Of a stretch of DNA of 61,541 nucleotides, positions 5,298-56,793 are shown piece by piece. Source of the stretch: Bacteroidales bacterium (GTDB lineage: Bacteria > Bacteroidota > Bacteroidia > Bacteroidales > P3). The position numbers and the translations under genes are program-made. The notes beneath the pieces are model-generated. The model was not told the DNA's origin and made no database searches. It worked only from the letters and a program-made list of their open reading frames with translations. The first letter of the stretch is position 1. Every line of letters starts with the position of its first letter. The DNA lies in contig JAFZTV010000031.1 in assembly GCA_017618625.1 (NCBI GenBank), positions 1 through 61,541 on the forward strand, read 5' to 3'.

Positions 5298-5584
5298 GTA
5301 GGTCCAGAATAGGCGCAGAATAGGCGCAAAGTAGGCTCTGTATAGGCTCTGTATAGGGTCTGTACAGGGTCTGTAAACACCTGATGTGGGTCTGAAGTAG
5401 GTCTAAAGTAGGACAAAAGTAAATGCAAAGTCGGAGCAAAGTAAAACAAAAGTAAAAGCAAAATAGACCAAAAAGTAGGAGAAAGGTAGGCCAAAAGTAG
5501 GAGAAAAGTAGGCAAAAAGTAGGCCAAAAGTAAAACAAAAGTAGGAGAAAAGTAAAACAAAAGTAGGTGAAAACTAGGCGCCAA
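5298..5584. repeat. 11-bp period tandem array, about 26 units
   Basis: The stretch splits into 26 consecutive units. All are 11 bp except one 12-bp unit at 5463-5474. Typical units are GTAGGCCAAAA, GTAGGAGAAAA, GTAAAACAAAA and ATAGGCTCTGT. Neighbouring units are most alike, as expected from slippage or local duplication. It fills the 690-bp gap between the ferredoxin gene and the lipoprotein at 5704. The rest of that gap (5100-5297 and 5585-5703) is C-rich or unremarkable. Open frames across the array are only periodic peptides and are not called. Confidence 0.92.
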
Positions 5585-5703
5585 TTTCTTCTTTGTGGGA
5601 TGGATCTAAAACAAATCGGGGACGAAAAAAGTCCAATTGGACCCCCTTAGCCCAATTGGACATCTTAAACCTATTAGCCCTACAGCCCTCTTAAGTCAAA
5701 AAA

Positions 5704-6138
5704 TCATTTTTTCCCTCCGCGGCCGTTGGGCATTGGTGCCGACGTGCGTCTTTTTATCAAGTCGTATGCCTGCCACTTTCCGTTGCGCTTTCTCAACTCA
5801 ATCTCTCTCGAGTTGCGCTTCCTCGGTGTCTTCTTGTGCCACACCGCTGTCGCCGTTGTGTCGCTCGTCAGTTTCACATTCGTTATCCTCACCTTCGCTG
5901 GCAGGTCCTGTTCTATCACTTTCCTGTCAGTCTGTGCCAGGAGCGTACGGGCTGTCCCCAGCGTCTCTTTCTTTGTTTCCTCCGAGGCGTATTTCTCTGC
6001 CCTGTTCACATCGAAGTTCGCCAGCGACCACACATATTCGTATGCCACCTTCTTCACCGCCTTCTTCTCGGCCGATTTCTCGCATGCGCAGCTGCAGAAA
6101 AGCATCAGCGCGCATATTGAATAAACTGTTAGTTTCAT
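5704..6138 (-). CDS. Small lipoprotein, NTF2/DUF4878-like
   Basis: A 144-aa protein starting MKLTVYSICALMLFCSCACEK, a lipoprotein signal peptide with a cysteine cluster at residues 15-19, so it is probably anchored in a membrane. The mature part has a helical region (KVAYEYVWSLANFDVNRAEKYAS), then strand-rich sequence ending NGKWQAYDLIKR. This resembles small SnoaL/NTF2-fold (DUF4878-type) lipoproteins common in Bacteroidales. No enzymatic residues are evident and the function is unknown. It begins just 17 bp after the terminator hairpin of the upstream gene. Confidence 0.72.
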   Translation of the reverse strand: MKLTVYSICALMLFCSCACEKSAEKKAVKKVAYEYVWSLANFDVNRAEKYASEETKKETLGTARTLLAQTDRKVIEQDLPAKVRITNVKLTSDTTATAVWHKKTPRKRNSREIELRKRNGKWQAYDLIKRRTSAPMPNGRGGKK

Positions 6139-6154
6139 AGTATTCTTTTCAAAA

Positions 6155-6186
6155 CAAAAGCGACTACACTAATGTAGTCGCTTTTG
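6155..6186 (-). terminator. Rho-independent terminator after the two R-tailed lipoproteins
   Basis: Perfect 14-bp stem (6155-6168 with 6173-6186) around a 4-nt loop CTAA. The outer pairs are CAAAAG/CTTTTG, and a U-rich tail follows on the minus strand. Confidence 0.88.
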
Positions 6187-6215
6187 CATGTTTATTTAAG
6201 ACCTTTCAATGTCTA

Positions 6216-6563
6216 TTAGCGACGACGTCTTGCAGTACCAGAAACAGTACCATCCTCGTTGGTCTTAACCTCGATTTTACCGCTGTTGACCTCAACTTTG
6301 GTATCACCAGCCTCAACTGATACACCACCGTCGTTGTTCTTAACCTCTACCTTAGGAGTAGATTTCTTAGCGGGAGCGGCCTGTGCGGGAGTCTCCTGAA
6401 CGGCCTCGGCGACCTCTACGGGAGCCTCTTCTACGGTCTCCTCAACAACCTCCTCAACGGGAGTGCTGTCGATAGGTTCCTCAGCGGGTTTGTTGTTGTG
6501 GCAAGCCACGGTCAGACCCATAACTGCAACTGCAAGAGCGATGTTTCTTACGATAGTTTTCAT
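6216..6563 (-). CDS. Acidic small lipoprotein with C-terminal polyarginine tail
   Basis: A 115-aa protein with a lipoprotein signal (lipobox LTVAC near residues 17-21). A low-complexity Glu/Val/Pro/Ala region rich in VEE and APVE repeats follows, then a strand-rich VEVKNNDGGVSVEAGDTKVEV segment. It ends in GTARRRR. It forms a unit with the gene at 6599, 35 bp upstream, which also ends in a run of arginines. Function unknown; the composition suggests a periplasmic or surface structural role. Confidence 0.72.
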   Translation of the reverse strand: MKTIVRNIALAVAVMGLTVACHNNKPAEEPIDSTPVEEVVEETVEEAPVEVAEAVQETPAQAAPAKKSTPKVEVKNNDGGVSVEAGDTKVEVNSGKIEVKTNEDGTVSGTARRRR

Positions 6564-6598
6564 GTTTTTTCTTTTTTAGAGTTATTTTTGTGAATTGA

Positions 6599-7093
6599 TT
6601 ATCTTCTTCTAGCTTTACCTTTTGCCTCGACGAGAGTAGTATCGACTGTCCAAGAAGCGTTGTTCATGGTAATCTTCAGGTCAGCGTTCTCTTCACCAGC
6701 CTTCAAAGTCTCAACAACTTCGGCGTCAATAGTGTGAGCCACCAAGTCGATAGCGGTGATTTCCTGACTTTTGGAATCGACATTCCATCTGGAAGCTCCA
6801 TTAGCTGCTGTGTCAGCTTCGCCATTCTGATAGAAGAAGTAATAGTTGTTGTAGTTTCCAGCCGCGGTTCCAGTTTCACCATACACGAATGCACAGTTCA
6901 GGTCGTTGATATTGGTCTCGTAAGCTTCCATCAGAAGTTTCTGGTTCTGTTGGTTGCCAAGAACCTCACCTGCAGTCCACTGCTCTTTGTTGAACTTAAC
7001 GGTCAGAGCGTCCTTCTCGGTTTTTCCTCCGCAAGAGACGAACATGGCGGCAGCAACACATGCTACAGCGCAGAATGCAAAAATCTTTTTCAT
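6599..7093 (-). CDS. Small lipoprotein of unknown function, C-terminal ARRR tail
   Basis: A 164-aa protein starting MKKIFAFCAVACVAAAMFVSCGGK with a clear lipobox (FVSC, Cys about 21). The mature part is rich in Asn, Thr and Tyr (NYNNYYFFYQNGEADT) and looks like a single beta-rich domain. It ends KGKARRR, which parallels the ARRRR end of the next gene although the codons differ. I do not recognise a family. It is the first gene of the two-lipoprotein unit driven by the promoter at 7150-7179. Confidence 0.72.
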   Translation of the reverse strand: MKKIFAFCAVACVAAAMFVSCGGKTEKDALTVKFNKEQWTAGEVLGNQQNQKLLMEAYETNINDLNCAFVYGETGTAAGNYNNYYFFYQNGEADTAANGASRWNVDSKSQEITAIDLVAHTIDAEVVETLKAGEENADLKITMNNASWTVDTTLVEAKGKARRR

Positions 7094-7149
7094 TGTTTTG
7101 AAATTTTTAGTTAATAATGATTGATTAAAGATTCACGTTTTTTGTACTG

Positions 7150-7179
7150 CAAAGGTACAACTTATTTCGTTTTAACAAA
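7150..7179 (-). promoter_or_regulatory. Promoter for the lipoprotein pair
   Basis: Reverse-strand -7 TACCTTTG (plus 7150-7157) and -33 TTTG (7176-7179) are separated by 18 bp. It lies 57 bp upstream of the ATG at 7093. Confidence 0.65.
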
Positions 7180-7437
7180 TTTTCACGCTTTAAATTTGTG
7201 TTAAGAAATATTAAAATTATCTTAAAATATTGATTTTCAATACTGTTTTTTCCTGTTCCAAAAACCACCCAAAACTGCCCAACCGCCCTATTATCACATA
7301 TCTACGCCCTCACCTAAACCCGGTTTAAGCATCATTTTTGTCTTTTTCTTATATTTTTTGCAATCTCTCTCCCCCTGGTCAAAAAGAATTTTAGTCCTTT
7401 TCTAAATCCCCCGTCACCCTCTCCGGAAAAAATATAG

Positions 7438-7445
7438 TATCTTTG
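7438..7445 (+). promoter_or_regulatory. -7 element for the nitroreductase gene
   Basis: TATCTTTG matches the -7 consensus about 70 bp before the ATG. The leader carries repeated AATCACTA/TTCACCA-type units (7470-7515). The rest of the divergent gap 7180-7437 is AT-rich then C-rich, with no other feature seen. Confidence 0.5.
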
Positions 7446-7515
7446 CAAAATCACATATTAATACATTTGTCTAATCACTATTCACCAATAACTAATCACT
7501 AATCACCAAACACCA

Positions 7516-8043
7516 ATGAACCAAGTAATCGATTGCCTCTGCTCTCGCCGTAGTGTCCGCAGCTACACCTCTCGCCAAGTTAACCCCGACGACCTGCAGG
7601 CCGTCCTACGTGCCGGCACCTTCGCCGCAACTGCCCATGGCCGTCAAGACCCATGGATTGTCGCCGTTCAGAACCCCGACATCATCAAGCGCCTCGTTGC
7701 CATGAATGCCGCCGTAATGGGCACCACCGACAACCCCTACTATGGCGCCCCCACCATCATACTCGTCTTCGCCTCCGACCCTGCCGTCTGGCCCAACAGC
7801 CTCTACGACGGTGCGCTCGTCCTCGGCAACATGATGAACGCCGCCCACTCCCTCGGCCTTGCCTCCTGCTGGATTAACCGCGAGCGTGAAATGTTCGCCA
7901 CCGACGAGGGTCGCGACCTTATGCGTAAATTGGGACTCCCCGACGGTCTTATTGGCATTGGCGCTCTCTCCCTCGGCTATGCCGACGGCGAACCTAAAGC
8001 TCCGAAAGAGCGCAAAGCGGGCTATTCCCGTGTCATTGCTTGA
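7516..8043 (+). CDS. Nitroreductase family protein
   Basis: A 175-aa single-domain FMN-dependent nitroreductase. The N-terminal SRRSVRSYTSRQV is the classic FMN-phosphate binding start. HGRQDPWIVAVQN and the C-terminal GLPDGLIGIGALSLGY segment are also typical. Such enzymes use NAD(P)H to reduce nitro compounds, quinones or flavins; the natural substrate is unknown. It is monocistronic. Its 3' end overlaps the convergent BatA-like gene by 22 bp, so the two transcripts are antisense there. Confidence 0.88.
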   Translation: MNQVIDCLCSRRSVRSYTSRQVNPDDLQAVLRAGTFAATAHGRQDPWIVAVQNPDIIKRLVAMNAAVMGTTDNPYYGAPTIILVFASDPAVWPNSLYDGALVLGNMMNAAHSLGLASCWINREREMFATDEGRDLMRKLGLPDGLIGIGALSLGYADGEPKAPKERKAGYSRVIA

Positions 8044-10103
8044 TTGTGCCGCTTCCTGAAGGGGATGCGTAGCAGCAGCGTCTCAGCCGCCAGCATTGCC
8101 AGTGCTCCCAGCAGGAACCACCTCGTCAGAGACCGTCCTCCCGTCCGCTGGCGTATTAGCTCGTCCATAGGTTTCGCGCTGTTGTCGAACACCTCTACGT
8201 CCTTCGCCTCCAGTTCCTTTATGGTTGCCTTCAGCTCTTTCGCACTGCAGAATTCCATCTGCGACTCGCTGCGGCTGTAGTTGAACGAAAGACCCTGTTC
8301 CGCCTTCCCGTTGCTTAGGCGGTAGTTTCCCGCCTCCAGCTGCATCCCGTCGGCCATCAGGTACGAATGTTTCCCTGTGTGCCTTATCTCTGCCACCGTG
8401 GTGCCTTCCTCCCCCTCTTTTGCAAGGCTTGTCTGACCCTCTGTCGCAGCCGACCCAACCTCCACCGTCGCACCCTCCGCAAGCGTATAGTAAAGCATCG
8501 GTGTCGGACGGCTGTACAGCGCCATATTGTATATTGTGGGCACAAAGAGTGCCTGCTGCATGAAGTCGCCGTTAGTCGTTTCCAATGGTGCGGTGAACAG
8601 ATAAACCACTCCTTCGCCGCATGGCACCGCCGCCAAATAGACCGCCCCGTTAGCCATCGTCAGTATCTCCTCGCACGACGCCCCGGCTGTGTTCCTCAGC
8701 GTGAAGTAACCTTTCACCGTCGGCAGCTCCACGTTTTCCTCCACCCGTCTGAACACCTGGTGGAACAGTGCCGCCTCGGTGTTGAGCCTCGTGCAGCTCG
8801 AAGTGTTGGTGTCGTACCCTTCAATCTGCGGCGCCCCGACGGCTGTCAGCAGGGTGTTGTACGACTCTATGTCGCAGTCGGCCGGAGGCGCAATCAGCAG
8901 TGTGCCGCCATCCTCCACATAGTTCCCCAGTGTCTGCGCCACTCCCGAGGTGATTGACTTCACCGATGTCAGCGTTATGAGTTCAATCTCATCGCTCTGG
9001 CTCAGGTCTGCCGACGCAAGTGTCGATTCGGCATATTCCGTTATCGAGTCGCCGTCAAACAGCCGTCTTATATATGTGTTGGCCGTACCGCCGTGAAGTG
9101 CCAGCACCCGCTGCCTATCCCTCACGTTCACGGAGAAATAAAGTCTGTCGTCAAAGGTTATCGGATAGTCCGTTAGCTCGACATATCCGTTCATCACACC
9201 CACCCCCCTCACTGTAAAGCTTAGTCTCGCCTCGGTCTGCGACTTCCCGTCCACATCCACGCTCGCCAGTCCTTTCTGTTCGCCGTTCACGTATAGCTTC
9301 ACAGGCAGGCTCTCCACCCGTTTTTCTCCAGTGTTGCGCACCACCGCCGTAAGCCTTACCTCGCTGCCCTCGCTGGCCAGCGGCTCGTCGAGCCACACCG
9401 TGTCTATATATAGGTTTCCCTGTCCGGTAGCTCCCAGCGGCACCAGTGAATATCTGCATCCGCTCTCACTGTCTGCCGTTTGCTGCCTGCTGTCCGCCAA
9501 ATCCCACGCTGACCGCTGGAAGTCCGAGATTACGTAAGCATGTACGCCCGACGACACTCCCGTCGCAAAGGCCGCCTGTTTCTGCATGGCGTCGCCTATG
9601 GCCATGCTCTGTGCCGACAGCTGTACTTCATCTACCGTCGCGAGGAATTCCTCTCGCGTCATCGACCTCCGCCGTTGTCCGCCGTTGTCGTTCGTGACTA
9701 TTTGGAATCTTGTCTCCGCCGGATATGCCGCCGCTATCTCTCTCGCCTTCTTCTTAGCCTGTTCCAGCAGTATTCCCTCGGAGCCCTCGTCGCCCATGCT
9801 GTACGAGTTGTCGATATACACCGACACGCATGTCCCGCCGATGAGTGCCTGCTCCGACTGCTTCCTCACCTTCGGCTGTGCAAACGCCAGCACCAGCAGG
9901 GTTATCGCCAGTACCCTTGCCGCCAACACCAGCCATTCCCTCAGCCGTGAGCTGTTACGCTGTTCCGACTGCAGCTCCGAGAGCATCTCCGTATTGCTGA
10001 AGTACACCTTCTTGTAGCGACGCAGCTTCACCAGGTGTATTATTATAGGTATCAGCACCGCTACGAGCGCTATCAGCATCAAAGGATTGGCAAAATAAAG
10101 CAT
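8022..10103 (-). CDS. BatA-like double-transmembrane protein with von Willebrand factor A-like domain
   Basis: A 693-aa protein. The N-terminus (MLYFANPLMLIALVAVLIP...LVKLRRYKKVYFSNTEML, second TM near residues 56-76) matches the BatA/aerotolerance double-TM domain. A VWA-like fold follows with a degenerate MIDAS (VYIDNSYSMGDEG near 92-104). A long extracytoplasmic region contains a DUF4159-like/GATase-fold segment, and a final TM lies near residues 665-683. The family is linked to envelope stability; the exact role is unknown. A 7-bp repeat-like stretch encodes QQTADSES near residue 208. Its own nth neighbour lies 38 bp upstream. Confidence 0.82.
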   Translation of the reverse strand: MLYFANPLMLIALVAVLIPIIIHLVKLRRYKKVYFSNTEMLSELQSEQRNSSRLREWLVLAARVLAITLLVLAFAQPKVRKQSEQALIGGTCVSVYIDNSYSMGDEGSEGILLEQAKKKAREIAAAYPAETRFQIVTNDNGGQRRRSMTREEFLATVDEVQLSAQSMAIGDAMQKQAAFATGVSSGVHAYVISDFQRSAWDLADSRQQTADSESGCRYSLVPLGATGQGNLYIDTVWLDEPLASEGSEVRLTAVVRNTGEKRVESLPVKLYVNGEQKGLASVDVDGKSQTEARLSFTVRGVGVMNGYVELTDYPITFDDRLYFSVNVRDRQRVLALHGGTANTYIRRLFDGDSITEYAESTLASADLSQSDEIELITLTSVKSITSGVAQTLGNYVEDGGTLLIAPPADCDIESYNTLLTAVGAPQIEGYDTNTSSCTRLNTEAALFHQVFRRVEENVELPTVKGYFTLRNTAGASCEEILTMANGAVYLAAVPCGEGVVYLFTAPLETTNGDFMQQALFVPTIYNMALYSRPTPMLYYTLAEGATVEVGSAATEGQTSLAKEGEEGTTVAEIRHTGKHSYLMADGMQLEAGNYRLSNGKAEQGLSFNYSRSESQMEFCSAKELKATIKELEAKDVEVFDNSAKPMDELIRQRTGGRSLTRWFLLGALAMLAAETLLLRIPFRKRHNQAMTRE

Positions 10104-10141
10104 CTCAGTCTTATCGTTTCAAGATTACATACATTCACCCC

Positions 10142-10783: not shown

Positions 10784-10822
10784 AGTTCATCAAAATCGTT
10801 TGTTGCTTCTCTAATCCACTCG

Positions 10823-11911: not shown

Positions 11912-11917
11912 GGCCTG

Positions 11918-11951: not shown

Positions 11952-12083
11952 TATAGTAAATATGCTTCGGAATATCATGATTTTTCATTGATTCAAACCA
12001 TTCCAGTCAGCTTTAATGATTCTCGATAATTGTCTAATAATCATTAGTTATCTTTAGTTGTGTTGAAATAAAATCACATTTTT

Positions 12084-14992: not shown

Positions 14993-15039
14993 GTATAGTA
15001 AACGACAAAGCGACTGGTTTATTGTTTCGCAAAGATTCG

Positions 15040-15047
15040 TATTTTTG
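15040..15047 (+). promoter_or_regulatory. -7 element for the flavin reductase-like gene
   Basis: TATTTTTG matches TAnnTTTG, 47 bp before the ATG at 15094, in the divergent gap with the symporter. Confidence 0.5.
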
Positions 15048-15093
15048 CATTCCGATTGCGCAGTAAGCGCTGATGTATTTAGTTGAAAAATAG

Positions 15094-15729
15094 ATGAAAA
15101 ATATAGTTATAATTGACGGAGGTCCGAGAAAAAACATGAACACGGCGGCTATGGCCGAGGCATTTGCAGAGGGTGTGCGCGAAGGCGGAGGCGAGGTGCA
15201 GACGTTCCGTCTGTACGACATCGACTACAAAGGATGCCGAAGCTGCCTGGTGTGCAAGCTGAAGGATAGGCTTTACAGCGATGTGTGTGCGTGGAAAGAC
15301 GGGCTCACCGAGGTGTTGAAAGCCGCCACCTATGCCGACGGGGTGCTTTTTGCTTCGCCTGTCTATTTCGGACGTGTGACAGGCCAGATGGAGTGTTTTG
15401 TGGAGAGGCTCACTTTCCCGTGGCTGAGCTACGACGACTACCGTCTGCTGCCGCCTAAACGCATACCGTCGGCGGTTATATACACTATGAACGACATCTC
15501 GGACAACCGTCGGGGGCTGCGCTCGTTCGAGCTGCTGGTGGGCGGGTTCTACGGCGAGCTGCCGGAGAAGGCGGTGGCGTACAATACCTATCAGGTCGAA
15601 GACTACGACCGCTACGCGATGGCGGCGCACCCGAAGGATGTGAAAGAGCAGTGGCGCAGAGAACACTGGCAGGAAGACCTGGAAACCGCCTGTGCCCTGG
15701 GAAGGCGGATGATGGAAAGGGTCGGTTGA
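15094..15729 (+). CDS. Flavodoxin-fold NAD(P)H:FMN reductase-like protein
   Basis: A 211-aa protein of the flavodoxin-like/NADPH-dependent FMN reductase family. The FMN-phosphate loop GGPRKNMNTAAMAEAF is at residues 9-24. The GCRSCLVCK cluster (47-55) is typical of iron-sulfur flavoproteins and related reductases. ASPVYFGRVTGQMECFVER (87-105) is the second flavin loop. The substrate is unknown. It precedes the radical SAM gene by 134 bp with a promoter between, so it may or may not belong to that pathway. Confidence 0.85.
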   Translation: MKNIVIIDGGPRKNMNTAAMAEAFAEGVREGGGEVQTFRLYDIDYKGCRSCLVCKLKDRLYSDVCAWKDGLTEVLKAATYADGVLFASPVYFGRVTGQMECFVERLTFPWLSYDDYRLLPPKRIPSAVIYTMNDISDNRRGLRSFELLVGGFYGELPEKAVAYNTYQVEDYDRYAMAAHPKDVKEQWRREHWQEDLETACALGRRMMERVG

Positions 15730-15781
15730 GACCGATTTATATATATTTTAATAAATTGTTCGCAAGTGCGTATTTTTTTCG

Positions 15782-22871: not shown

Positions 22872-23816
22872 ATGAACATATCAAAGTCATATCAAAGTCA
22901 TATCAAAGTCATATCAAAGTCATATCAAAGTCACTGCAAAGCCGCTGCAAAGCCGCTGCAAAGTCGCTGGAAGGTCTGTCTTTGTATTTGGCTGTTGGTT
23001 TTCGTTGCTGCGGGACCGAGTGTGACGGCGCAGAAGATAGTGCACCTGTATCCCGACTCGAAGAACAAATCGGAGAGGAAGGTGACGCTGGAGTGCTATC
23101 CAGTCGAGAACCCGATAGCCACAGTGGTGGTGTGCCCAGGAGGCAGCTACTGCTGGCTTGACTACGAAGGCGAGGGACAGGAGGTGGCGCAGTGGCTTCA
23201 GAGCCAGGGTTTCAGCGCTTTCGTACTGCGCTATAGAGTGGCAGGATGGTGGGCTTGGGCGTTCCACTACCGCACCATTTGTCGCGGACGTCAGCAGCCG
23301 GACATGTTTAACGACGCACATGCCGCGCTGCGGTGGCTGAACGACCATGCAAAGGAATATAACATAGATACCAAGCGTATAGGTATGATGGGATTTTCGG
23401 CAGGAGGCCATCTGGTGATGACGATGGGATGTTTTGAGAGGGAGTTTAAGCCGCTGTTTGTGGCACCGATATACCCAGTGGTGACTATGACTGAGGATTG
23501 TGTGCACCGCCGTTCACGTCGCGGGCTGCTCGGCGACAAGGGCTGGCGCGACGAGAGACTGAGAGATTCGCTGTCGCTTGAAAGGCATGTGCCGAAGGAT
23601 TGCCCGCCCGTGTTTGTGGTCAACTGTGTGGATGACCCTGTGGTGGACTACCACAACAGCATGTTGCTCGACTCGGCGCTTACGGCGCAGGGCGTAAAAC
23701 ACAAATATATACAGTACAAGACTGGCGGCCACGGTTTCGGAGTGAATGAGAAGAAAGGGTCGGAGGAGTGCCGTCCGTGGAAATGGGAGTTTTTGAAATG
23801 GTATAAGCAGTTATGA
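22872..23816 (+). CDS. Secreted alpha/beta hydrolase (esterase/acetylxylan esterase-like)
   Basis: A 314-aa alpha/beta hydrolase starting at 22872. VVVCPGGSYCWLDYEGEG supplies the oxyanion-hole region (HGG-like CPGGSY) near residues 78-94. The nucleophile elbow GFSAGGH is near 176-182, VDDPVVDYHNS carries the acid, and GGHGFGV the catalytic His. A signal peptide is present (KVCLCIWLLVFVAAGPSVTAQ). Its N-region is encoded by an 11-bp tandem array, so residues 3-35 are repeat-derived and the true start is uncertain. Likely periplasmic esterase, possibly for the exported lipid or a glycan. Confidence 0.82.
   Translation: MNISKSYQSHIKVISKSYQSHCKAAAKPLQSRWKVCLCIWLLVFVAAGPSVTAQKIVHLYPDSKNKSERKVTLECYPVENPIATVVVCPGGSYCWLDYEGEGQEVAQWLQSQGFSAFVLRYRVAGWWAWAFHYRTICRGRQQPDMFNDAHAALRWLNDHAKEYNIDTKRIGMMGFSAGGHLVMTMGCFEREFKPLFVAPIYPVVTMTEDCVHRRSRRGLLGDKGWRDERLRDSLSLERHVPKDCPPVFVVNCVDDPVVDYHNSMLLDSALTAQGVKHKYIQYKTGGHGFGVNEKKGSEECRPWKWEFLKWYKQL
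22878..22976. repeat. 11-bp tandem array, nine units, at the 5' end of the hydrolase gene
   Basis: Five identical units ATATCAAAGTC (22878-22932) are followed by ACTGCAAAGCC, GCTGCAAAGCC, GCTGCAAAGTC and GCTGGAAGGTC. All are exactly 11 bp. Because 33 bp is in frame, the array encodes an 11-residue periodic peptide at the protein N-terminus. Confidence 0.93.
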
Positions 23817-34826: not shown

Positions 34827-35113
34827 CCAACCCCAACCGTCGCCCTCCCCAACCCCACGGTTGCCGCCATCCAACCCCATCGTCACCCTCCCCAACCCCA
34901 ACCGTTGCCGCCACCCAACCCCAACCGTTGCCGTTCCCAACCCCAACAGTCGCCCTCACCAACCCCCACGGTTGCCGCAATCCATCCCCGCCGTTGCCGC
35001 ACACTATCCCCGCCGTTGCCGTTCCCAACCCCAACAGTCGCCCTCATCAACCCCCACGGTTGCCGCAATCCATCCCCACGGTTGCCGCAATCCATCCCCA
35101 CGGTTGCCGTCGG
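34827..35113. repeat. 22-bp period tandem array, about 13 units
   Basis: Units such as CCATCCCCACGGTTGCCGCAAT and CCAACCCCAACAGTCGCCCTCA repeat every 22 bp (21-23 in a few). This is twice the 11-bp period of the other arrays. It is strongly C-rich on the plus strand. It occupies the 744-bp gap between hutU and recO. Proline-rich or glycine-rich open frames through it are repeat artefacts. Confidence 0.9.
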
Positions 35114-35163: not shown

Positions 35164-35207
35164 TAACTCAAAAGGTGAGCAGAAGGTGAGCAGAAGGTGA
35201 GCAAAAC
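35164..35207. repeat. Short 11-bp array, three to four units
   Basis: GTGAGCAGAAG (35175-35185), the identical GTGAGCAGAAG (35186-35196) and GTGAGCAAAAC (35197-35207) follow a diverged unit at 35164-35174. The remaining gap to recO (35208-35413) is T/C-rich with weak 11-12-bp spacing of TTTGCACC-like motifs at 35350-35400; no gene is seen. Confidence 0.8.
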
Positions 35208-35413
35208 CTGTAACTATAAAAAGTTGAACTACAGCTCGTTATAAGCCCTAAAATGCCTGTTTTTTGCACACTTTTTAAGGCTTATTATCCGCATTCTCAG
35301 CTATATAGCTTTTCGATTTTCTCCGCCACTTTTACCGTTTTTTCGATGCTTTTGCACCTCTTTTTGCACCACTTTTCGCACCCCCTCTCGCAGCCTCTCT
35401 CTCCCCTCTCCTC

Positions 35414-44821: not shown

Positions 44822-45664
44822 TCATTTAGTACCCACGTTGCGCAACGCTATGCTCAAGACGGATGCTATGAGCGAGGCTATGCTCACCCAGAACGATGCG
44901 CTCAATACTGTATTTCCGTTTACGGTCGAGGTGCGAGCTTTCTTGGCCGTTGGAGCCGCATATATCACGTCGTTTTGGCTTAGGTAGAAGGCCGGCGACG
45001 AATAGACCTCTTTTTGGTTCCTCAAATCCACCATGTAGTTCTTCACGGTGTCGCCGACTATGCGAGTGATGGTGACGTCGCGGCGTGCGTCGATGGTCAG
45101 GTCGCCTGCGGCTGCCAGGGCGTCGAGGAGGGTGTAGCTGTCGCGGTTAATGTTGACGCGTCCAGGGGCTTTTACCTCACCAAGGACGGTTACGCCGAGG
45201 TCAACGAACTCGACCGATACGTTTGCGCCACGCGCCTGTCCTTGTTTCTCCAGCTCGTCCTTCACCATATTTGCAATCTCTTGGCGGGTCAGGCCTGCGA
45301 CGTGAAGCTTGCCCAGGACGGGGAAGTCGATGTTGCCTTCGGCGTCAACGGTATAGCCCACGATTCCGTTGCTTCCCGTGACGCTGACTCGCTGGGTGCT
45401 TCCCATAATCTGGTTCACGGTGAACTGGTTGAACAGCGAACTGGCTTCCATGTCCTCGCACTTCACGATGATGGCAATCTTGTCGGCCGGGCGCACGCGC
45501 ACGACTTTGAGCGTTTGCATCTGTATGGTTTCGTTTTCGCTCGAATCCTGGAAGTAAACGATTTTCTTTTCGCTGTGGCATGCTGTCAGCGTCATCAGTA
45601 GAGCGGCTGCGACCAGCATAGAGGCCTTTGACAGGCTGTTTTTCAAAAGATTGGTGTGACCCAT
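44822..45664 (-). CDS. Polysaccharide export outer-membrane lipoprotein (Wza-like)
   Basis: A 280-aa lipoprotein (signal MLVAAALLMTLTAC, lipobox Cys near 29). A poly-export domain (VVRVRPADKIAIIVKCEDMEASSLFNQF, VDAEGNIDFPVLGKLHVAGLTRQEIANMVKDEL) and an SLBB-type domain (VTVLGEVKAPGRVNINRDSYTLLDALAAAG) follow. A hydrophobic C-terminal helix (VLSASFWVSIASLIASVLSIAL) could cross the outer membrane. First gene of the export trio. Confidence 0.93.
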   Translation of the reverse strand: MGHTNLLKNSLSKASMLVAAALLMTLTACHSEKKIVYFQDSSENETIQMQTLKVVRVRPADKIAIIVKCEDMEASSLFNQFTVNQIMGSTQRVSVTGSNGIVGYTVDAEGNIDFPVLGKLHVAGLTRQEIANMVKDELEKQGQARGANVSVEFVDLGVTVLGEVKAPGRVNINRDSYTLLDALAAAGDLTIDARRDVTITRIVGDTVKNYMVDLRNQKEVYSSPAFYLSQNDVIYAAPTAKKARTSTVNGNTVLSASFWVSIASLIASVLSIALRNVGTK

Positions 45665-45692
45665 GGGTGATGTTGATTCTACAATGAAAGTG

Positions 45693-45700
45693 CAAAGATA
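45693..45700 (-). promoter_or_regulatory. -7 element for the exopolysaccharide trio
   Basis: Reverse-strand TATCTTTG, 29 bp before the ATG at 45664. The short leader leaves little room for regulation. Confidence 0.5.
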
Positions 45701-45773
45701 CTAAATTTTATTAAAAATATGTACTTAATTACAAATCTTTTTCGGGATGCGGGTATTTATTGAAATAGTTTGC

Positions 45774-45781
45774 TATATTTG
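45774..45781 (+). promoter_or_regulatory. Orphan -7 element upstream of a 35-aa ORF
   Basis: TATATTTG matches TAnnTTTG in the rpsO-wza gap, 22 bp before an ATG at 45804. No convincing -33 element. Confidence 0.35.
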
Positions 45782-45803
45782 TAGTGTCGAAACAATTTTT
45801 AAG

Positions 45804-45911
45804 ATGTTATACAATGGATTGTATATTAATTGTTTGGCCAGTATTGCGTCAATACTGCTGATTTGCACGGTTGGATTTTTGCCGCTGCAACATCTTGATA
45901 GACAGTTTTAA
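45804..45911 (+). CDS. Candidate 35-aa small hydrophobic protein
   Basis: An ATG at 45804 opens a 35-codon frame: MLYNGLYINC, then LASIASILLICTVGFLPLQ, ending HLDRQF and TAA. One predicted TM segment lies at about residues 9-27. A -7 promoter box lies 22 bp upstream, and an 11-bp repeat array begins 5-16 bp after the stop. No clear Shine-Dalgarno sequence, which is common in Bacteroidota. No family recognised; it could be a chance ORF. Confidence 0.3.
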   Translation: MLYNGLYINCLASIASILLICTVGFLPLQHLDRQF

Positions 45912-45915
45912 ATGA

Positions 45916-46025
45916 TGCTCACCTCCGTATCAACGCCGTATTAACACCGTATTAAAGCCGTATCACCCTCAGGATTCACTCGGTACTCACTCAGTACTCC
46001 TTCAGTACTCCTTCGGTACAAGGCT
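45916..46025. repeat. 11-bp tandem array, nine to ten units
   Basis: Consecutive 11-bp units: GTATCAACGCC, GTATTAACACC, GTATTAAAGCC, GTATCACCCTC, AGGATTCACTC, GGTACTCACTC, AGTACTCCTTC (twice) and GGTACAAGGCT. No gap or unit-length change from 45927 on. Confidence 0.9.
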
Positions 46026-46250
46026 ATGTTTTGGTCGGGGTTGGGTTTGAGGTTGGTCGGGTTGTATTTGTGATGGTTTTTGGGGTGAGGCGGGTTTTGC
46101 TGTGGGTTGCATTGTTTGGGGATTTGTGTGAAGGTTGTGTTCGGTTGCGTGGCGGTTTGTTTGGGAGGGTGTTTTGGTTGGTATTTAGGTTGTTAGTGGT
46201 GTGGGGAGTCTGGTGGTTTGTGGGTTGGTGAGGCGGTGTTACTTTCATTT
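46026..46250. other. C-poor, G/T-rich strand-asymmetric segment
   Basis: About 225 bp of almost only G and T on the plus strand, with repeated GGG/GGGG runs (GGTCGGGGTTGGG, GGTTGGTCGGG) that could form G-quadruplexes. A faint 11-bp spacing is possible. Open frames on both strands here are compositional artefacts. Confidence 0.7.
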
Positions 46251-46318
46251 TGGAGTGTTAAAAAGTCTTAAAATATATCTTTTTGCCGGGTTTTAACACA
46301 AAAACCAGGATAAAAGTG

Positions 46319-46326
46319 TAACTTTG
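46319..46326 (+). promoter_or_regulatory. -7 element for rpsO
   Basis: TAACTTTG matches the consensus, 48 bp before the ATG of rpsO. Confidence 0.5.
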
Positions 46327-46374
46327 CAAACCGTTAGTAATTCAAAAATAATCATAACTAAATAATTTACAACT

Positions 46375-50175: not shown

Positions 50176-50230
50176 AAGTTATTGTGAGATTGTTTGATTG
50201 CGTTATTGCGTAAGAGGCTGAATGAGGTTG

Positions 50231-50238
50231 CAAAAGTA
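50231..50238 (-). promoter_or_regulatory. -7 element for prfA
   Basis: Reverse-strand TACTTTTG, 56 bp before the ATG at 50175. Confidence 0.45.
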
Positions 50239-50266
50239 CGCATTTTTTGTTGATTATCATAAAAAG

Positions 50267-50304
50267 CAAAAGGGAATCCCGTTGCGTGGCGGGACTCCCT
50301 TTTG
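50267..50304 (-). terminator. Terminator after kbl
   Basis: CAAAAGGGA (50267-50275) pairs with TCCCTTTTG (50296-50304). After one mismatch, TCCCG pairs with CGGGA. The loop is 8 nt and a T-rich tail follows on the minus strand. Confidence 0.88.
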
Positions 50305-50320
50305 AAGTATTTGACCGAAG

Positions 50321-51502: not shown

Positions 51503-51590
51503 AACAGAATATTTTTGAATGTTTTAATGTTTGTCGTTGATAGGATGATGCTGAGGAAGAATAAACGAGACTTGTCAGTTAACTGAGGTG

Positions 51591-51598
51591 CAAAATTA
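51591..51598 (-). promoter_or_regulatory. -7 element for kbl
   Basis: Reverse-strand TAATTTTG matches TAnnTTTG, 88 bp before the ATG at 51502. Confidence 0.4.
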
Positions 51599-51660
51599 CT
51601 TAAATTTGTCCAACGATTTATAAAATTAACAGTTAATTTTTCAGGGTCGAACCATGCGTG

Positions 51661-52803: not shown

Positions 52804-52804
52804 C

Positions 52805-53131
52805 TTACATCAATCCTAATTCCAGTTTAACTTCGTCGGACAGGTTGTTGAAATCCCACGGTGGGTCGAAGGTGAGTTCGACGTTGACGGACTTTATACC
52901 GCTGATACACTCGGTCATCTGGCGCACTTCCAGAAACATATACTCTGCCTCCGGGCAGTCGGGTGCCGTCATGGTCATCAATATTTTCAGGTTGAAGTCG
53001 TCGTCGATGTCAATCTTATAAATTAGCCCCAGGTCATATATGTTGACTGGAATTTCCGGGTCATATATGTTCTTCAGCGCGTTGACAACGGCACTGTGCA
53101 GGGTTTCCTTGGTGGGTTTTATTTCTTCCAT
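52805..53131 (-). CDS. DUF59/MIP18 metal-sulfur cluster assembly factor (SufT-like)
   Basis: A 108-aa protein with ALKNIYDPEIPVNIYDLGLIYKIDID (17-42), MTMTAPDCPEAEYMFLEVRQ (51-70; the conserved Cys is at 58) and VNVELTFDPPWDFNNLSDE. The family helps Fe-S cluster delivery. Here it is 3 bp from sufE, which supports that role. Confidence 0.9.
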   Translation of the reverse strand: MEEIKPTKETLHSAVVNALKNIYDPEIPVNIYDLGLIYKIDIDDDFNLKILMTMTAPDCPEAEYMFLEVRQMTECISGIKSVNVELTFDPPWDFNNLSDEVKLELGLM

Positions 53132-53134
53132 CGT

Positions 53135-53557
53135 TCAGTCTTTTTTCAAAGAAAAGGCAAGCGCGTACATCTTCAGCTGTTTGAGCATAGAGGTGAGACC
53201 GTTTGACCGTGTTGGGGAGAGGTGTTCCTTCAAACCGATTTGGTCGATGAACACAGGCTCGTTGTTCAGTATATCCTGTGGAGTCTGTCCGCTATAGACG
53301 CGAATGAGCAGCGAAATGATGCCTTTGGTGATGACGGCGTCGCTGTCGGCTTTGAAAAACACTTTGCCGTCGTGGTACTCGCAACTCACCCACACGCGCG
53401 ACTGGCAGCCTTTTATCAGGTTGGCCTCGGTCTTGTCTTTCTCATCGATAACAGGGCATTCTTTGCCCAGGTCTATGATGTAGGCGTATTTGTCTATCCA
53501 TTCGTCAAAATTGGCGAATTCGTCGATTATCTGTTGTTCAATTTCTTGTATGGTCAT
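53135..53557 (-). CDS. sufE: Cysteine desulfuration protein SufE
   Basis: A 140-aa SufE. It begins MTIQEIEQQIIDEFANFDEWIDKYAYIIDLGKE. The sulfur-accepting Cys is in ANLIKGCQSRVWVSCEY near residue 51. It takes persulfide from SufS for Fe-S assembly. The rest of the suf operon is not in the window; its partner here is DUF59. Confidence 0.93.
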   Translation of the reverse strand: MTIQEIEQQIIDEFANFDEWIDKYAYIIDLGKECPVIDEKDKTEANLIKGCQSRVWVSCEYHDGKVFFKADSDAVITKGIISLLIRVYSGQTPQDILNNEPVFIDQIGLKEHLSPTRSNGLTSMLKQLKMYALAFSLKKD

Positions 53558-53593
53558 TATTACCTAAACAATAAAGTTAGCGTTGATATTATG

Positions 53594-54703
53594 TTATTTC
53601 GGTGCTTTTTTTACAAGATATGCGGCTGCTATGCCGAATACCAGCTGCGGCAGGAGAACTGCCCAGAATGGCGGCAGGTTGCCGTTTATGGCGAACACAG
53701 TGGTTATTTTCATAAAAACGATGAAGGCGAAGGCTATGCTGATGCCAATGGCCAGGTGTAGTCCGATGCCGCCACGTGTCTTGCGCGACGACACAGCCAC
53801 CCCGATAAATGTCATCACTATTACCGCCATGGGATTCAGTATGCGTTGCCACAGCTCTATCGACGAGGTCACCACGGTGGACGAGCCGCGCAGCCGTTCG
53901 CGTTGGATATATCTGTACAGTTGGGGTGTGTTCATCACTTGTATCTGCTGCGACGACAGTTTGAAATCATCCGGCGATAATTCGAGCGGTTGGGTGCATC
54001 TTGGTTGGTGGGTCAGCGTTTCTTTGCCGTCTTTCAGGTTCCTCGTATAATAATCTGTGCATTTCCACATGTTTGATGTCGAGTCAAAGATTATCCGTTC
54101 CGCAGTTATCCGTTGGCACAGCGCATTGCTGCTGTCCATTTTGTCAACACACAGGTTGAATGCCGTCATGTTTTCAGCATTGTAAGAGGTTGAATATACC
54201 AGCGTTTTTTCGTCGCTTTTGAAATGGACGCTGCCGAAATAACTCCGTTTCATCGGCCTGAAATAGTTGTTCTCGAACTCCATCAGGTACTGGTTGCTCC
54301 ATGGTATCACGAAGTTGCTCATGACTATTACCATCACCGCCACTATTATCGACCCGTGCAGATAGGGTTGCAGCAAACGTTTGTAGCTCAAACCGCTGCC
54401 AAGTATTGCGATTATCTCCGTGTTGCCCGCCATCTTCGACGTGAAAAATATCACCGAGATAAAGATGAACAGCGGGCTGTAGAGGTTTATGAATCCGGGG
54501 ATGAAGTTAAGGTAGTACTGGAACACAATCTTGCTCAGCGGGGCGTGGTTGCGCAGAAAATCGTCAAGTTTCTCTGAAATGTCGAAGGTGATGACAATGA
54601 CTATTATGAGCGCCATGGCCAACAGGAAGGTCTTCAGATATTTCTTCAAGATATATCCGTCAATCAGCTTGTAGCGTTCCAAATATCTTGCTCTGATGCC
54701 CAT
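53594..54703 (-). CDS. LptF/LptG family LPS export permease
   Basis: A 369-aa YjgP/YjgQ-family protein. The start KLIDGYILKKYLKTFLLAMALIIVIVITFDI contains TM1. Further TMs lie near 60-85 and 105-125, with a large periplasmic jellyroll domain (residues ~130-275), then three C-terminal TMs. It is one half of the LptB2FG complex that extracts LPS from the inner membrane. LptF versus LptG cannot be told apart here. It lies 36 bp upstream of sufE. Confidence 0.88.
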   Translation of the reverse strand: MGIRARYLERYKLIDGYILKKYLKTFLLAMALIIVIVITFDISEKLDDFLRNHAPLSKIVFQYYLNFIPGFINLYSPLFIFISVIFFTSKMAGNTEIIAILGSGLSYKRLLQPYLHGSIIVAVMVIVMSNFVIPWSNQYLMEFENNYFRPMKRSYFGSVHFKSDEKTLVYSTSYNAENMTAFNLCVDKMDSSNALCQRITAERIIFDSTSNMWKCTDYYTRNLKDGKETLTHQPRCTQPLELSPDDFKLSSQQIQVMNTPQLYRYIQRERLRGSSTVVTSSIELWQRILNPMAVIVMTFIGVAVSSRKTRGGIGLHLAIGISIAFAFIVFMKITTVFAINGNLPPFWAVLLPQLVFGIAAAYLVKKAPK

Positions 54704-54716
54704 CTGTTATCAAAAA

Positions 54717-54752
54717 ACAGGGACTCCTGCGCATCCGCCAGAGAGTCCCTGT
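54717..54752 (-). terminator. Terminator after the methylmalonyl-CoA mutase subunit gene
   Basis: ACAGGGACTC (54717-54726) pairs with GAGTCCCTGT (54743-54752) around a 16-nt loop. On the minus strand a run of T follows. The AGGGA(C/G)TC core resembles the kbl terminator. Confidence 0.85.
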
Positions 54753-54783
54753 CTTCATTATTGTGATTTAACTGACCTCTGAC

Positions 54784-56649
54784 TTATAAGTTAATTCCCA
54801 TCAGCTTCTGGAATGCCGTGAGCGACTCAAGCACGTTGGTCTTGACATGTATGAATTCGTCCACGCCCAAGCCCTTGTACATCTCAATCTGCTCTTTCGG
54901 GTATCCGGCCAGCACTATGCTCTTCACCTTGCCTTTAAGTCCGTTGCATACGGCCTCGGCGATTTCGGGATATTCATCGTCGCTTGAGCACATGACCACG
55001 ATGTCGGCTTGTGCCTCAAGTGCGGCTTTCACGCCTTCTTCGGCGCTCTTGAAGCCGGGGTTGTCTATAATCTGATAGCCTGCCACTCCGAAGAAATTGG
55101 TTGCAAAGCCTGAACGGGCCTTTCTCATGGCCAGGTTGCCGTAGGTCAGCAGGAACACCTTCGGTTTCTTGCCCGACTGCTCCGTGGCCAGTCTCAGATG
55201 CTCGAAAGCCTCTGCTCCGCGATACAGGCGCAGCGTCTTTATTGGACCTTCTGCCTTGTGGCAGCAGCAGCCACATTCCTTCTTCACAATCTTCTCGCCC
55301 ATGATCTCCAACAGGTTCGGGTACTGATTGGTGCCGAGTATGGTGGTTTTGCGAGTGGCGATGTCCATGTCGCGCTGGGCGGCTATGCGTTCCACCTCGG
55401 CTTGTACAAAGCCCTCTTTTATAGCCTGTGCGAATCCGCCTTTGCCTTCGGCCGTAACAAACAGCTCCCAAGCGTATTGAGCTATCGAGTTGGTCAGGTT
55501 CTCGATGTAGTAGCTGCCGGCGGCGGGATCGACAATCTTGTCCAGATACGACTCCTCTTTCAGCAGTATCTGCTGGTTGCGGGCAATGCGGTAGCCAAAT
55601 TCGTCGGCCTCCTTGTATGCCGTGTCAAACGGTGCCACGCTTATCGAGTCGGCACCGGCGATGGCTGCCGACATTGTCTCCGTGGTCGTTCTCAGCATGT
55701 TCACGTATGGGTCGTATATCGACTTGTTCCAGCGGCTCGACGTGGTGTGGATGAACACCTTGTATGCGCAGTCGCACTCGGGTTTGTATTGCTCCACAAT
55801 CTTGCTCCAAAGCAGGCGTGCAGCCCTGATTTTGGCAATCTCCATAAAGTAGGTGCTGCCCGTCGCAAACGAGAAGACTATTCGTTTCGCCACATCCTCC
55901 ACCTTGCAGCCCATGTCCGTCAGGTGTGCCATGAGGTCGTTGGCGGCCGCGAGCGTGAAGCCCAGTTCCTGTACTATGTTGCTGCCTGCGTTGTGAATCA
56001 CGTTGCCGTTGACGGTGAACACCTTGAATAGCGGCAGTTCCTCTTTGGCGTATGCCAGCAGTTCGGCAGCGGCCTTGTAGTCGCCCTCTTCGCCGCGGTG
56101 GAAGTCACCGTGCGTCAGCGCATAGCGGTACATGTCGAAATTGCAGCTTCCTTCCAGCTTCTTTGTGTCGAAGCCGTTCTTCTTCGCAACGGCTACATAC
56201 ATCTTCAGCACCGTCAGATAGTCCTCAGCACAGGTGAAGTTCACCTTTATCGCATCCACAAATATCCCCTTCAGCAGCGTCTCCATGTCCTGCTCCGTGG
56301 CAATGCCCTTTGTGCAGAACGCCAGCGATGTGGCGCCTCTCTTCAACGCATCCAGCGCTATGGCGTTGGCCTTCGATGGGTCTTTCTCCGTGATGTCCTG
56401 GCGTATGTCCCACACGTTGTTGTCCGTGTGTTTGCCGCGCGTGTAGGGCTTCTGTCCGGGGTTCGAGTCCAGATATTCAAGGTTCTGCAGGTCTTCGGCT
56501 CTGTAGTATGGTTTTACCTTGAATCCCTCGATGGTTTTCCATACGAGTTTCTTTTCGTAGTCAGCACCTTTCAGGTCTTTGTTGATGACTTCTTCCCATT
56601 TTTCCGTCGAAACTGGAGGGAATTCGCTGAACAATTTATTGTCTTCCAT
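54784..56649 (-). CDS. mutA: Methylmalonyl-CoA mutase small subunit
   Basis: A 621-aa small (beta) subunit. The N-terminal TIM-barrel region has KLVWKTIEGFKVKPYYRAEDL (34-54) and YTRGKHTDNNVWDIRQDI. TTSSRWNKSIYDPYVNMLRTTTETMSAAIAGADSISVAPFD near 304-344 and a VDPAAGSYYIENLT site follow. A C-terminal Rossmann domain (~480-621) lacks the DxHxxG cobalamin motif, as expected for the non-catalytic subunit. A cysteine cluster ECGCCCHK lies near residue 455. The large subunit MutB normally follows directly, but here a terminator and the LptF/G gene follow instead. Confidence 0.92.
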   Translation of the reverse strand: MEDNKLFSEFPPVSTEKWEEVINKDLKGADYEKKLVWKTIEGFKVKPYYRAEDLQNLEYLDSNPGQKPYTRGKHTDNNVWDIRQDITEKDPSKANAIALDALKRGATSLAFCTKGIATEQDMETLLKGIFVDAIKVNFTCAEDYLTVLKMYVAVAKKNGFDTKKLEGSCNFDMYRYALTHGDFHRGEEGDYKAAAELLAYAKEELPLFKVFTVNGNVIHNAGSNIVQELGFTLAAANDLMAHLTDMGCKVEDVAKRIVFSFATGSTYFMEIAKIRAARLLWSKIVEQYKPECDCAYKVFIHTTSSRWNKSIYDPYVNMLRTTTETMSAAIAGADSISVAPFDTAYKEADEFGYRIARNQQILLKEESYLDKIVDPAAGSYYIENLTNSIAQYAWELFVTAEGKGGFAQAIKEGFVQAEVERIAAQRDMDIATRKTTILGTNQYPNLLEIMGEKIVKKECGCCCHKAEGPIKTLRLYRGAEAFEHLRLATEQSGKKPKVFLLTYGNLAMRKARSGFATNFFGVAGYQIIDNPGFKSAEEGVKAALEAQADIVVMCSSDDEYPEIAEAVCNGLKGKVKSIVLAGYPKEQIEMYKGLGVDEFIHVKTNVLESLTAFQKLMGINL

Positions 56650-56687
56650 TAAGTTGTGTGTTTATGTTACGTGGTGTGTGTAAACCG

Positions 56688-56695
56688 CAAAGATA
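56688..56695 (-). promoter_or_regulatory. -7 element for mutA
   Basis: Reverse-strand TATCTTTG, 39 bp before the ATG at 56649. Confidence 0.5.
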
Positions 56696-56760
56696 GTAAA
56701 TAATTATTAATAATCCTAACCTCTACGAAAAACACTTTTCCATGTCGTATCTCTACACGT

Positions 56761-56793
56761 CTTTCACATGACTTTGATATGACTTTGGTCCAC
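56761..56793. repeat. 11-bp array, three units, opposite orientation
   Basis: On the minus strand this reads ATATCAAAGTC flanked by similar 11-mers (plus-strand units CTTTCACATGA, CTTTGATATGA, CTTTGGTCCAC). The unit is identical to that of the nine-unit array at 22878. It lies just after the stop of the AddA-type gene. Confidence 0.75.

What the first reader, a model, noticed from the sequence alone, without database searches (positions are those of the whole stretch)
5298..56793. Dispersed intergenic arrays with a strict 11-bp (or 22-bp) period
At least five arrays sit in separate intergenic or gene-edge sites: 5298-5584 (26 units), 22878-22976 (9), 35164-35207 (3-4), 45927-46025 (9) and 56761-56793 (3). 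A 22-bp version lies at 34827-35113. Sequences differ between arrays but the period holds, with only one unit-length change in the 26-unit array. Many units share a CAAAG(T/C)C-like core. 11 bp is close to one DNA turn, so the arrays may place a protein repeatedly on one DNA face, or arise from a slippage or templated process with a fixed step. I know of no described element with this behaviour.
Basis: partly seen in the sequence, partly recalled or inferred. Interest (0 to 1): 0.75.

Follow-up and report, generated by a model that had tools for sequence, protein, structure and literature searches.

The report
Eleven-base repeat tails on dispersed elements
In a group of gut bacteria, many spacers between genes carry short repeats with a fixed 11-base step, and at least one set of them forms the tail of an apparently undescribed, many-copy element that looks like a small RNA gene.

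Summary
The arrays are real. The window comes from a rumen Bacteroidales (Colimorpha-like genus). In sampled stretches of the genus, intergenic arrays have discrete periods: 93 of period 11 against 9, 10, 2 and 0 of periods 9, 10, 12 and 13; but periods 7 (101) and 8 (49) are favoured too. The 108 period-11 arrays fall into 28 unit families. Between species, 7 of 19 array gaps are multiples of 11 as aligned, against 3 of 49 flank gaps.

Array 4 (45925-46022) is the tail of a dispersed element: promoter motif TAnnTTTG (30 of 30 copies examined), a body with a covarying hairpin, then the 11-nt tail (best lag 11 in 30 of 30). There are 19-20 hits in G055 and at least 25 in G027; no Rfam match was found. 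The tail meets a published Rho-site rule in 28 of 29 copies, against 399 of 1504 control windows.

I favour copying of composite elements with an inherited step, array 4 being the probably Rho-terminating tail of a multicopy small RNA. The Rho reading does not extend to the other arrays. Protein phasing on DNA is untested. No transcription data were available.

The parts
5298..5584 (-). array 1 (family A): composite 11-bp array, C/T-rich on the - strand (TTTTACTTTTC-like block, then TATACAGACCC-like block)
   Evidence: related composites at five sites of G055 (one of them the orthologue) and in G027; the G027 orthologue differs by 22 bp, the G055 one by gaps of 11, 12 and 22
22877..22976 (+). 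array 2: CATATCAAAGT / CGCTGCAAAGC units inside the predicted N-terminus (before the hydrophobic core of a likely signal peptide) of the alpha/beta hydrolase ORF 22872-23816
   Evidence: the G055 orthologue is 33 bp shorter and in frame, the G027 one (27 bp longer) is also in frame
34827..35113 (.). 22-bp array, two alternating 11-mers, C-rich on +, with register slips
35166..35211 (-). array 3 (family D, GCTCACCTTCT / AGGTTTTGCTC on the - strand); flanking sequence shared with L139 and L148 of G055
45774..45781 (+). Bacteroidota -7 promoter motif TATATTTG of the family B element
   Evidence: the motif TAnnTTTG is at this place in 30 of 30 copies, a TT(T/G)G near -33 in 10 of 30 and not in this one
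45782..45924 (+). body of the family B element: helix 1 45839-45845 / 45851-45857, a weaker second hairpin, and a 35-codon ORF (45804-45911) without codon-position bias
45925..46022 (+). array 4: 11-nt tail of the family B element (CCGTATCAACG block, then TTCAGTACTCC block)
56755..56790 (-). array 5: about 2.5 units of CAAAGTCATAT; the G055 orthologue has 22 bp more
7471..7517 (+). 7-bp array (CTAATCA) ending at the start codon of the nitroreductase-like ORF 7516-8043
3600..3684 (.). two 8-bp arrays with roughly complementary units (TGTTGATA / CTTATCAA); an imperfect inverted pair by eye, not counted as one at 19 of 22 matches
2637..2723 (.). two 7-bp arrays with roughly complementary units (GGTGATT / ACTATTCACTCATC); imperfect inverted pair by eye, not counted as one at 19 of 22 matches

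Best explanation
The 11-bp arrays belong to a class of dispersed composite elements found mainly in this genus. Shown: arrays of different unit sequence keep one 11-bp step; blocks of different units follow one another in the same order at several sites; orthologues gain and lose whole units more often than flanking DNA shows gaps of that size. Array 4 is the 3' half of a discrete element of about 310 bp (promoter motif, RNA-like body with a covarying hairpin, then the 11-nt tail) that has been copied whole; there are 19-20 hits in G055 and at least 25 in G027. Inferred: the step is inherited when elements are copied, and arrays then grow and shrink by slippage or unequal recombination of whole units. 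Inferred for family B: it is transcribed as a small RNA, and its C-rich, G-poor tail with a cytosine every 11 nt acts as a Rho-utilisation ladder, one unit per Rho protomer, that ends the transcript. Not explained: how the elements move, and what the arrays without an RNA body do.
For: Discrete periods by two methods. 28 unit families among 108 arrays, with an excess of related units (55 pairs match at 9 of 11 or better against 4.3 in shuffled units). Composites in the same order at several sites. Four G055 copies 78-98% alike per 30-column block over about 310 bp, 26-47% outside. Promoter motif in 30 of 30 and best lag 11 in 30 of 30 copies, even where neighbouring units are only about 50% alike. 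Helix 1: 90.7% of 182 cells paired against at most 59.9% when slid; 17 cells changed on both sides against 4.4 in shuffles, 0 of 500 reaching it. Copy numbers. Rho-site rule met in 28 of 29 tails, all with C/G of 2 or more, against 399 of 1504 control windows (215 of 1504 at that ratio), 4 of 29 bodies and 3 of 29 stretches beyond the tail. Gaps that are multiples of 11: 7 of 19 in arrays, 3 of 49 in flanks.
Against: The Rho reading does not extend beyond family B: over all 11-bp arrays of the clade (family B included) the C-rich strand is the coding sense in 12 and the antisense in 9; for 37 array clusters without B, a promoter motif lies upstream on the C-rich strand in 8 and on the G-rich strand in 9, with a -33 motif in 1 and 5. 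The spacing part of the Rho rule is met almost automatically by any C-containing 11-nt repeat; only the C/G excess is independent. 12 of 19 array gaps are not multiples of 11 as aligned (four of these, at one place, sum to 22 and are one 22-bp gap in the MAFFT alignment; six are in the poorly alignable G027 array 4; the others are 12 and 27). Four recent copies (L139, L141, L142, L188) lack 12 nt of the helix 1 region. Helix 2 is weak (67.9% paired). The number of pairs changed on both sides is not beyond shuffles (4 v 2.6, 57 of 500 reach it; 8 v 6.4, 59 of 500). RNAalifold predicted no structure on the 15-copy alignment; I named the helices from these sequences, which favours them over slid versions. 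L174 carries a family B-like tail without a body that the model finds. No terminal repeat or target duplication was seen, and no expression data exist here.
Confidence: 0.5

Rival explanations
1. Neutral minisatellites: the arrays are slippage products without function, like the heptamer repeats of cyanobacteria, and the step merely reflects descent from a few founder repeats.
For: Whole-unit length changes; no bias to the coding strand; related units more often than shuffled ones; period 7 and 8 arrays alongside; heptamer arrays reported in five Bacteroidetes (PMC4679880, abstract and one section).
Against: 28 unit families of one length while 12 and 13 are almost absent and 10 occurs in one genome only; best lag still 11 in tails whose neighbouring units are only about 50% alike, where slippage should be inefficient; family B has a constant promoter motif and a covarying hairpin; C/G strand asymmetry above matched spacers (median 0.47 v 0.23).
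Confidence: 0.3
2. Phased DNA sites: each unit binds one protomer of a DNA-binding protein along one face of the helix, as CarH does on tandem 11-bp repeats.
For: CarH oligomers bind three or four tandem 11-bp direct repeats on one DNA face (PMC9304148, passages); the register runs on across blocks of different sequence in family B. One block of array 1 has the CarH core TnnACA.
Against: TnnACA is no commoner than in shuffled units (7 of 70 v 7.2; 12 of 107 v 10.4); no core shared by the unit families; 7- and 8-bp arrays in the same genomes do not fit one face. No candidate protein was sought.
Confidence: 0.08
3. RNA hairpins of whole A-form turns: arrays evolve as arms of long stem-loops, and unpaired arrays are relics that lost one arm.
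For: Inverted partner within 150 bp for 9 of 14 period-11 arrays in G007 and 11 of 23 in other genus members; weak family B-like hits in G042 and G052 have an array followed by a partly complementary stretch (by eye). That A-form RNA has 11 bp per turn is recalled.
Against: 0 of 71 in the window's own clade; the 10-bp arrays of G007 are paired as often (6 of 11).
Confidence: 0.07
4. Family B is a small-protein gene (about 36 codons) with a repeat 3' UTR.
For: An ORF with its stop at the same place (position 132) in 15 of 30 copies.
Against: Changes between six close pairs fall evenly on codon positions (31, 33, 31); the other 15 copies end elsewhere; the hairpin is kept while residues change. 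The peptide could not be searched for homologues (too short).
Confidence: 0.05

Closest known systems
Heptamer repeat arrays: STRR of cyanobacteria (name recalled and seen in listings) and TAACTGA repeats of Beggiatoaceae, cyanobacteria and five Bacteroidetes (PMC4679880)
   Same: Dispersed, mostly intergenic arrays of a fixed short unit length; this genus also carries many 7-bp arrays
   Different: Unit is 11 bp, in 28 unit families; one family is the tail of an element with a promoter motif and an RNA-like body
FopS, family of paralogous sRNAs of Bacteroides (PMC11697453, passages)
   Same: Multicopy (12-15 per genome) sRNA family of Bacteroidota with a canonical sigma-ABfr promoter
   Different: FopS ends in a Rho-independent terminator; family B has an 11-nt repeat tail and no Rfam match in the scans made
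CarH operators (PMC9304148, passages)
   Same: Tandem 11-bp direct repeats
   Different: Three or four repeats with a TnnACA core at carotenoid promoters; here dozens of arrays without that core beyond chance
Rho utilisation (rut) sites (PMC6407284, passages)
   Same: C>G stretch with a cytosine every 11-13 nt
   Different: The rule describes spaced cytosines, not tandem repeats; termination was not tested here, and arrays outside family B do not follow the sense strand

Membership tests
Heptamer (STRR / TAACTGA) repeat class | unit length of 7 bp | tested here: not met
   unit is 11 bp for the arrays in question; 7-bp arrays exist beside them
Heptamer (STRR / TAACTGA) repeat class | dispersed, intergenic arrays | tested here: met
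   some arrays overlap ORFs as called by a simple length rule
FopS sRNA | match to the Rfam model | tested here: inconclusive
   no match over family B at gathering score in the window, nor up to E 5 on L172, L144 and window 45600-46350 except a chance-level miRNA hit; whether this Rfam copy holds FopS was not checked
FopS sRNA | Rho-independent terminator at the 3' end | not tested
   no terminator scan was run; by eye no hairpin with a T-run at the end of the tails shown
CarH operator | TnnACA core in the repeats | tested here: not met
   1 of 7 window units, 7 of 70 in the clade against 7.2 shuffled, 12 of 107 against 10.4 in all
Rho utilisation site (family B tail) | 78-nt window with C/G above 1 and a C every 11-13 nt | tested here: met
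   28 of 29 tails, control 399 of 1504; my own version of the rule, without its pause-site step
Rho utilisation site (family B tail) | Rho-dependent termination in vivo | not testable with these tools
   needs transcript ends with and without Rho activity
Rho utilisation site (all 11-bp arrays) | C-rich strand is the transcribed sense | tested here: not met
   12 v 9; promoter motifs 8 v 9 of 37
MITE / insertion-sequence derivative | terminal inverted repeats and target-site duplication | tested here: inconclusive
   sharp ends in four copies, no such repeats seen by eye; no systematic search

The most novel reading that the evidence does not exclude
A new kind of bacterial RNA gene: a mobile, multicopy, promoter-driven small RNA with a built-in 11-nt-register tail in which each repeat docks one protomer of the Rho hexamer, so that the tail can change length and sequence freely as long as the 11-nt ladder is kept. 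Related arrays elsewhere in the genome would be detached or decayed tails.
Probability: 0.2. Interest if true: 0.8.

Novelty: new variant of a known kind. Interest (0 to 1): 0.6.

Why it matters
Short repeat arrays of one fixed unit length but varied sequence are known in cyanobacteria and others without an agreed mechanism. Here an 11-bp version occurs in a genus for which 120 genomes are held, so the origin of a fixed step can be tested by comparison. The family B element ties such an array to a transcript-like unit with a covarying hairpin, which gives a handle on function and suggests that a regular repeat can serve as a termination ladder. If true, it would be a natural, evolving test of how Rho reads spacing.

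Tried and rejected
General Rho reading of all arrays: rejected by strand and promoter tests. Small-protein reading of family B: no codon-position bias. Regulon reading: genes next downstream or second downstream of six family B copies are unrelated (gyrB-like, DUF6769, radical SAM, sorting-domain protein, dnaX-like, one without a Pfam match), and rpsO in the window. Promoters made by the repeats themselves (TACTTTTG fits TAnnTTTG): spacing to a -33 motif did not fit, by eye only. Phage or plasmid carriage: one family B copy (L172 8540-8880) gave no match. Family B in other genera: 6 of 190 genomes of the family match at E 0.001, all of them already in the genus set; only 15 candidates a genome were scored, with strict filters, so absence is weak. 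Rows left out: six weak model hits (L276-L280, L283) were left out, although four that I printed look like diverged relatives with arrays; L139, L141, L142 and L188 were left out but are; L181 was left out because its tail is cut by the end of the stretch. The 30 copies examined are the window's, 27 of the 44 hits in G055 and G027, and 2 of G092. Direction of family B between co-directional genes is neutral (6 v 5), with 16 of 28 between divergent genes.
Full report
Source. The window encodes ordinary genes (urocanase, RecO, PorZ-like, PNPase, methylmalonyl-CoA mutase, UvrD-like helicase) and a tRNA and a tmRNA. Its urocanase is 94-97% identical in protein to uncultured Bacteroidales, several of them rumen MAGs (L001-L008), and 90% to Candidatus Colimorpha pelethequi (L011). 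No genome is held for the window. In the genus of G004 (120 genomes searched, 106 with a match) the nearest by pnp DNA are G055 (90%) and G027 (89%). G027 contig C20 and G055 contigs C2 and C7 are largely collinear with the window.

Observation. All five 11-bp arrays and the 22-bp array are present; array 5 is marginal. In sampled stretches, intergenic arrays (19 of 22 matches at one lag) have period 11 in G055 36 times against 3, 0, 0, 0 for 9, 10, 12, 13; in G027 13 against 1, 0, 0, 0; in other genus members 19 against 2, 0, 1, 0; in G007 8, where period 10 has 10. In 12 loci of the next relatives (L012-L022, L046) there is no period 11 but 10 of period 7, and in 57 more distant Bacteroidota loci (1.06 Mb) 1 of period 11 (3 by TRF). 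Shuffled intergenic sequence gave none in the genus. Pooled over the genus after removing identical arrays within a genome: period 7 101, 8 49, 9 9, 10 10, 11 93, 12 2, 13 0, 22 21. So the excess of 11 is real, but 7 and 8 are special too. Gene boundaries came from a simple ORF-length rule, not from a gene finder.

Units. The 71 period-11 arrays of the window, G055 and G027 have 52 distinct units (up to rotation and strand). Pairs matching at 9 of 11 or better number 55 against 4.3 in letter-shuffled units, but most pairs are at the chance level. Single linkage at 9 of 11 gives 28 families among 108 arrays from 16 genomes. Several arrays are ordered composites: family A (window array 1) at L136, L150, L175, L271 and L137 in G055 and at sites in G027; family B (window array 4) at many sites.

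Change between species. In pairwise alignments of the orthologous regions of arrays 1, 2, 4 and 5, 7 of 19 array gaps are multiples of 11 as aligned; four more, at one place of array 1 in G055, sum to 22 and are one 22-bp gap in the MAFFT alignment; the rest are 12, 27 and six gaps in the poorly alignable G027 array 4. Of 49 flank gaps 3 are multiples of 11 and 39 are 1-5 bp. Array 2 lies inside the predicted start of an alpha/beta hydrolase gene, before the hydrophobic core of a likely signal peptide; it stays in frame in all three species, and the window and G055 differ by 33 bp, the smallest whole-unit change that keeps the frame. Upstream of rpsO, 10 other genus members gave an rpsO hit with sequence shown: 6 have no array, 4 (L123, L124, L129, L100) have arrays of other units, with inverted partners by eye; nine fetched loci gave no rpsO hit.

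Family B. Array 4 is preceded by a conserved body, seen at 12 flanks of 64 sampled array clusters. A covariance model (R1, 11 copies) finds 19 copies in G055 and 25 in G027, where all 25 scored candidates matched, so 25 is a lower bound; 6 further genomes of 119 have 1-2 weaker matches. A second model (R2, 26 copies) gives 20 and 25, and 12 of 119 genomes in all; in the family 6 of 190 genomes match at E 0.001, all known already. Of 30 copies examined, 30 have TAnnTTTG at the start, 10 also a TT(T/G)G near -33 (the window's copy does not), and in 30 the best lag of the next 110 nt is 11. TAnnTTTG with TTTG at about -33 is the consensus of the main Bacteroides sigma factor (PMC7366714, passages). 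Helix 1: 90.7% of 182 cells paired; slid versions 25-60%; 17 cells changed on both sides against 4.4 in shuffles; but the number of pairs so changed, 4, is reached by 57 of 500 shuffles (26 copies). With 15 copies, including four that lack part of the hairpin: 86.5% of 89 cells. Helix 2 is weaker, 67.9%. RNAalifold alone predicted nothing on the 15-copy alignment. The ORF has no codon-position bias: 31, 33 and 31 changes in six pairs; its stop is at position 132 in 15 of 30 copies. No Rfam family matched in the scans made. Four G055 copies are 78-98% alike per 30-column block over about 310 columns, from about 50 bp before the RNA start to the last repeat unit, and 26-47% alike outside. Copies lie between divergent genes in 16 of 28 cases; between co-directional genes they point with the genes in 6 and against them in 5.

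Mechanism. Shown: family B is a discrete, copied element with a promoter motif, a covarying hairpin and an 11-nt tail. Inferred: it is a small RNA gene. RhoTermPredict defines a rut site as 78 nt with C/G above 1 and a C every 11-13 nt (PMC6407284, passages). By my version of that rule 28 of 29 tails qualify, all with C/G of at least 2; so do 4 of 29 bodies, 3 of 29 stretches beyond the tail and 399 of 1504 control windows, of which 215 reach a ratio of 2. I therefore propose that the tail ends the transcript through Rho, one unit per protomer. This does not carry over to the remaining arrays: over all 11-bp arrays of the clade, family B included, the C-rich strand is the coding sense in 12 and the antisense in 9 informative cases, and among 37 clusters without B promoter motifs lie upstream on the C-rich strand in 8 and on the G-rich strand in 9. 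For these I propose only inheritance of the step by copying, and growth and loss of whole units. Arrays are more C/G-asymmetric than matched spacer DNA (median 0.47 v 0.23). In other species many arrays have an inverted partner (9 of 14 in G007, 11 of 23 elsewhere, 0 of 71 in the window's clade), so hairpin formation is a live alternative there. The CarH core TnnACA is at the shuffled level (7 of 70 v 7.2).

What is known. Heptamer arrays are described in Beggiatoaceae, cyanobacteria and five Bacteroidetes (PMC4679880: abstract and the Bacteroidetes section). CarH operators are tandem 11-bp repeats (PMC9304148, passages). FopS is a multicopy sRNA family of Bacteroides with 12-15 copies and a Rho-independent terminator (PMC11697453, passages). 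Searches for 11-bp arrays found no description in Bacteroidota (listings, which show only part of the papers found). The library lacks most subscription journals, so this is weak evidence of absence.

Verdict. Real, unusual, found mainly in one genus, and partly explained. The strongest new item is the family B element with its 11-nt tail.

Noticed in passing
window 3688-5018: This stretch is 96-98% identical to G055 and G027 while most other aligned blocks are 75-93%, which suggests recent exchange; both relatives carry about 100 bp more at window 4793.
   Followed up: partly
L092-L111 (G007): This relative has long 7-bp (AAAGCGG), 8-bp (TTAACACA) and 10-bp (AAGTTAAGGG) arrays, and 24 of 68 of its period 7, 8, 10 and 11 arrays have an inverted partner.
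   Followed up: partly
7-bp arrays of the window, G055 and G027: A TAnnTTTG motif lies upstream on the C-rich strand in 11 and on the G-rich strand in 2 of 52 clusters, a bias that the 11-bp arrays lack.
   Followed up: no
G036, G055, G091, G019, G076, G095 (genus): Some species have 20-64 matches to a two-unit CCGTATCA pattern while 91 of 119 genomes have none, so copy number differs sharply between species.
   Followed up: no
window 46025-46250; L273, L281, L285 after the tail: A G- and T-rich stretch follows the C-rich tail in many of the family B copies shown (by eye).
   Followed up: no
L137 2286-6902: A Cas9-like gene (RuvC_III, HNH_4) lies directly downstream of a family A array in G055.
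   Followed up: no
G027 C20:75047-78894, window 14993-15778: G027 has about 3.8 kb here, with a family B copy at 75256-75411, where the window has 0.8 kb and no copy.
   Followed up: partly
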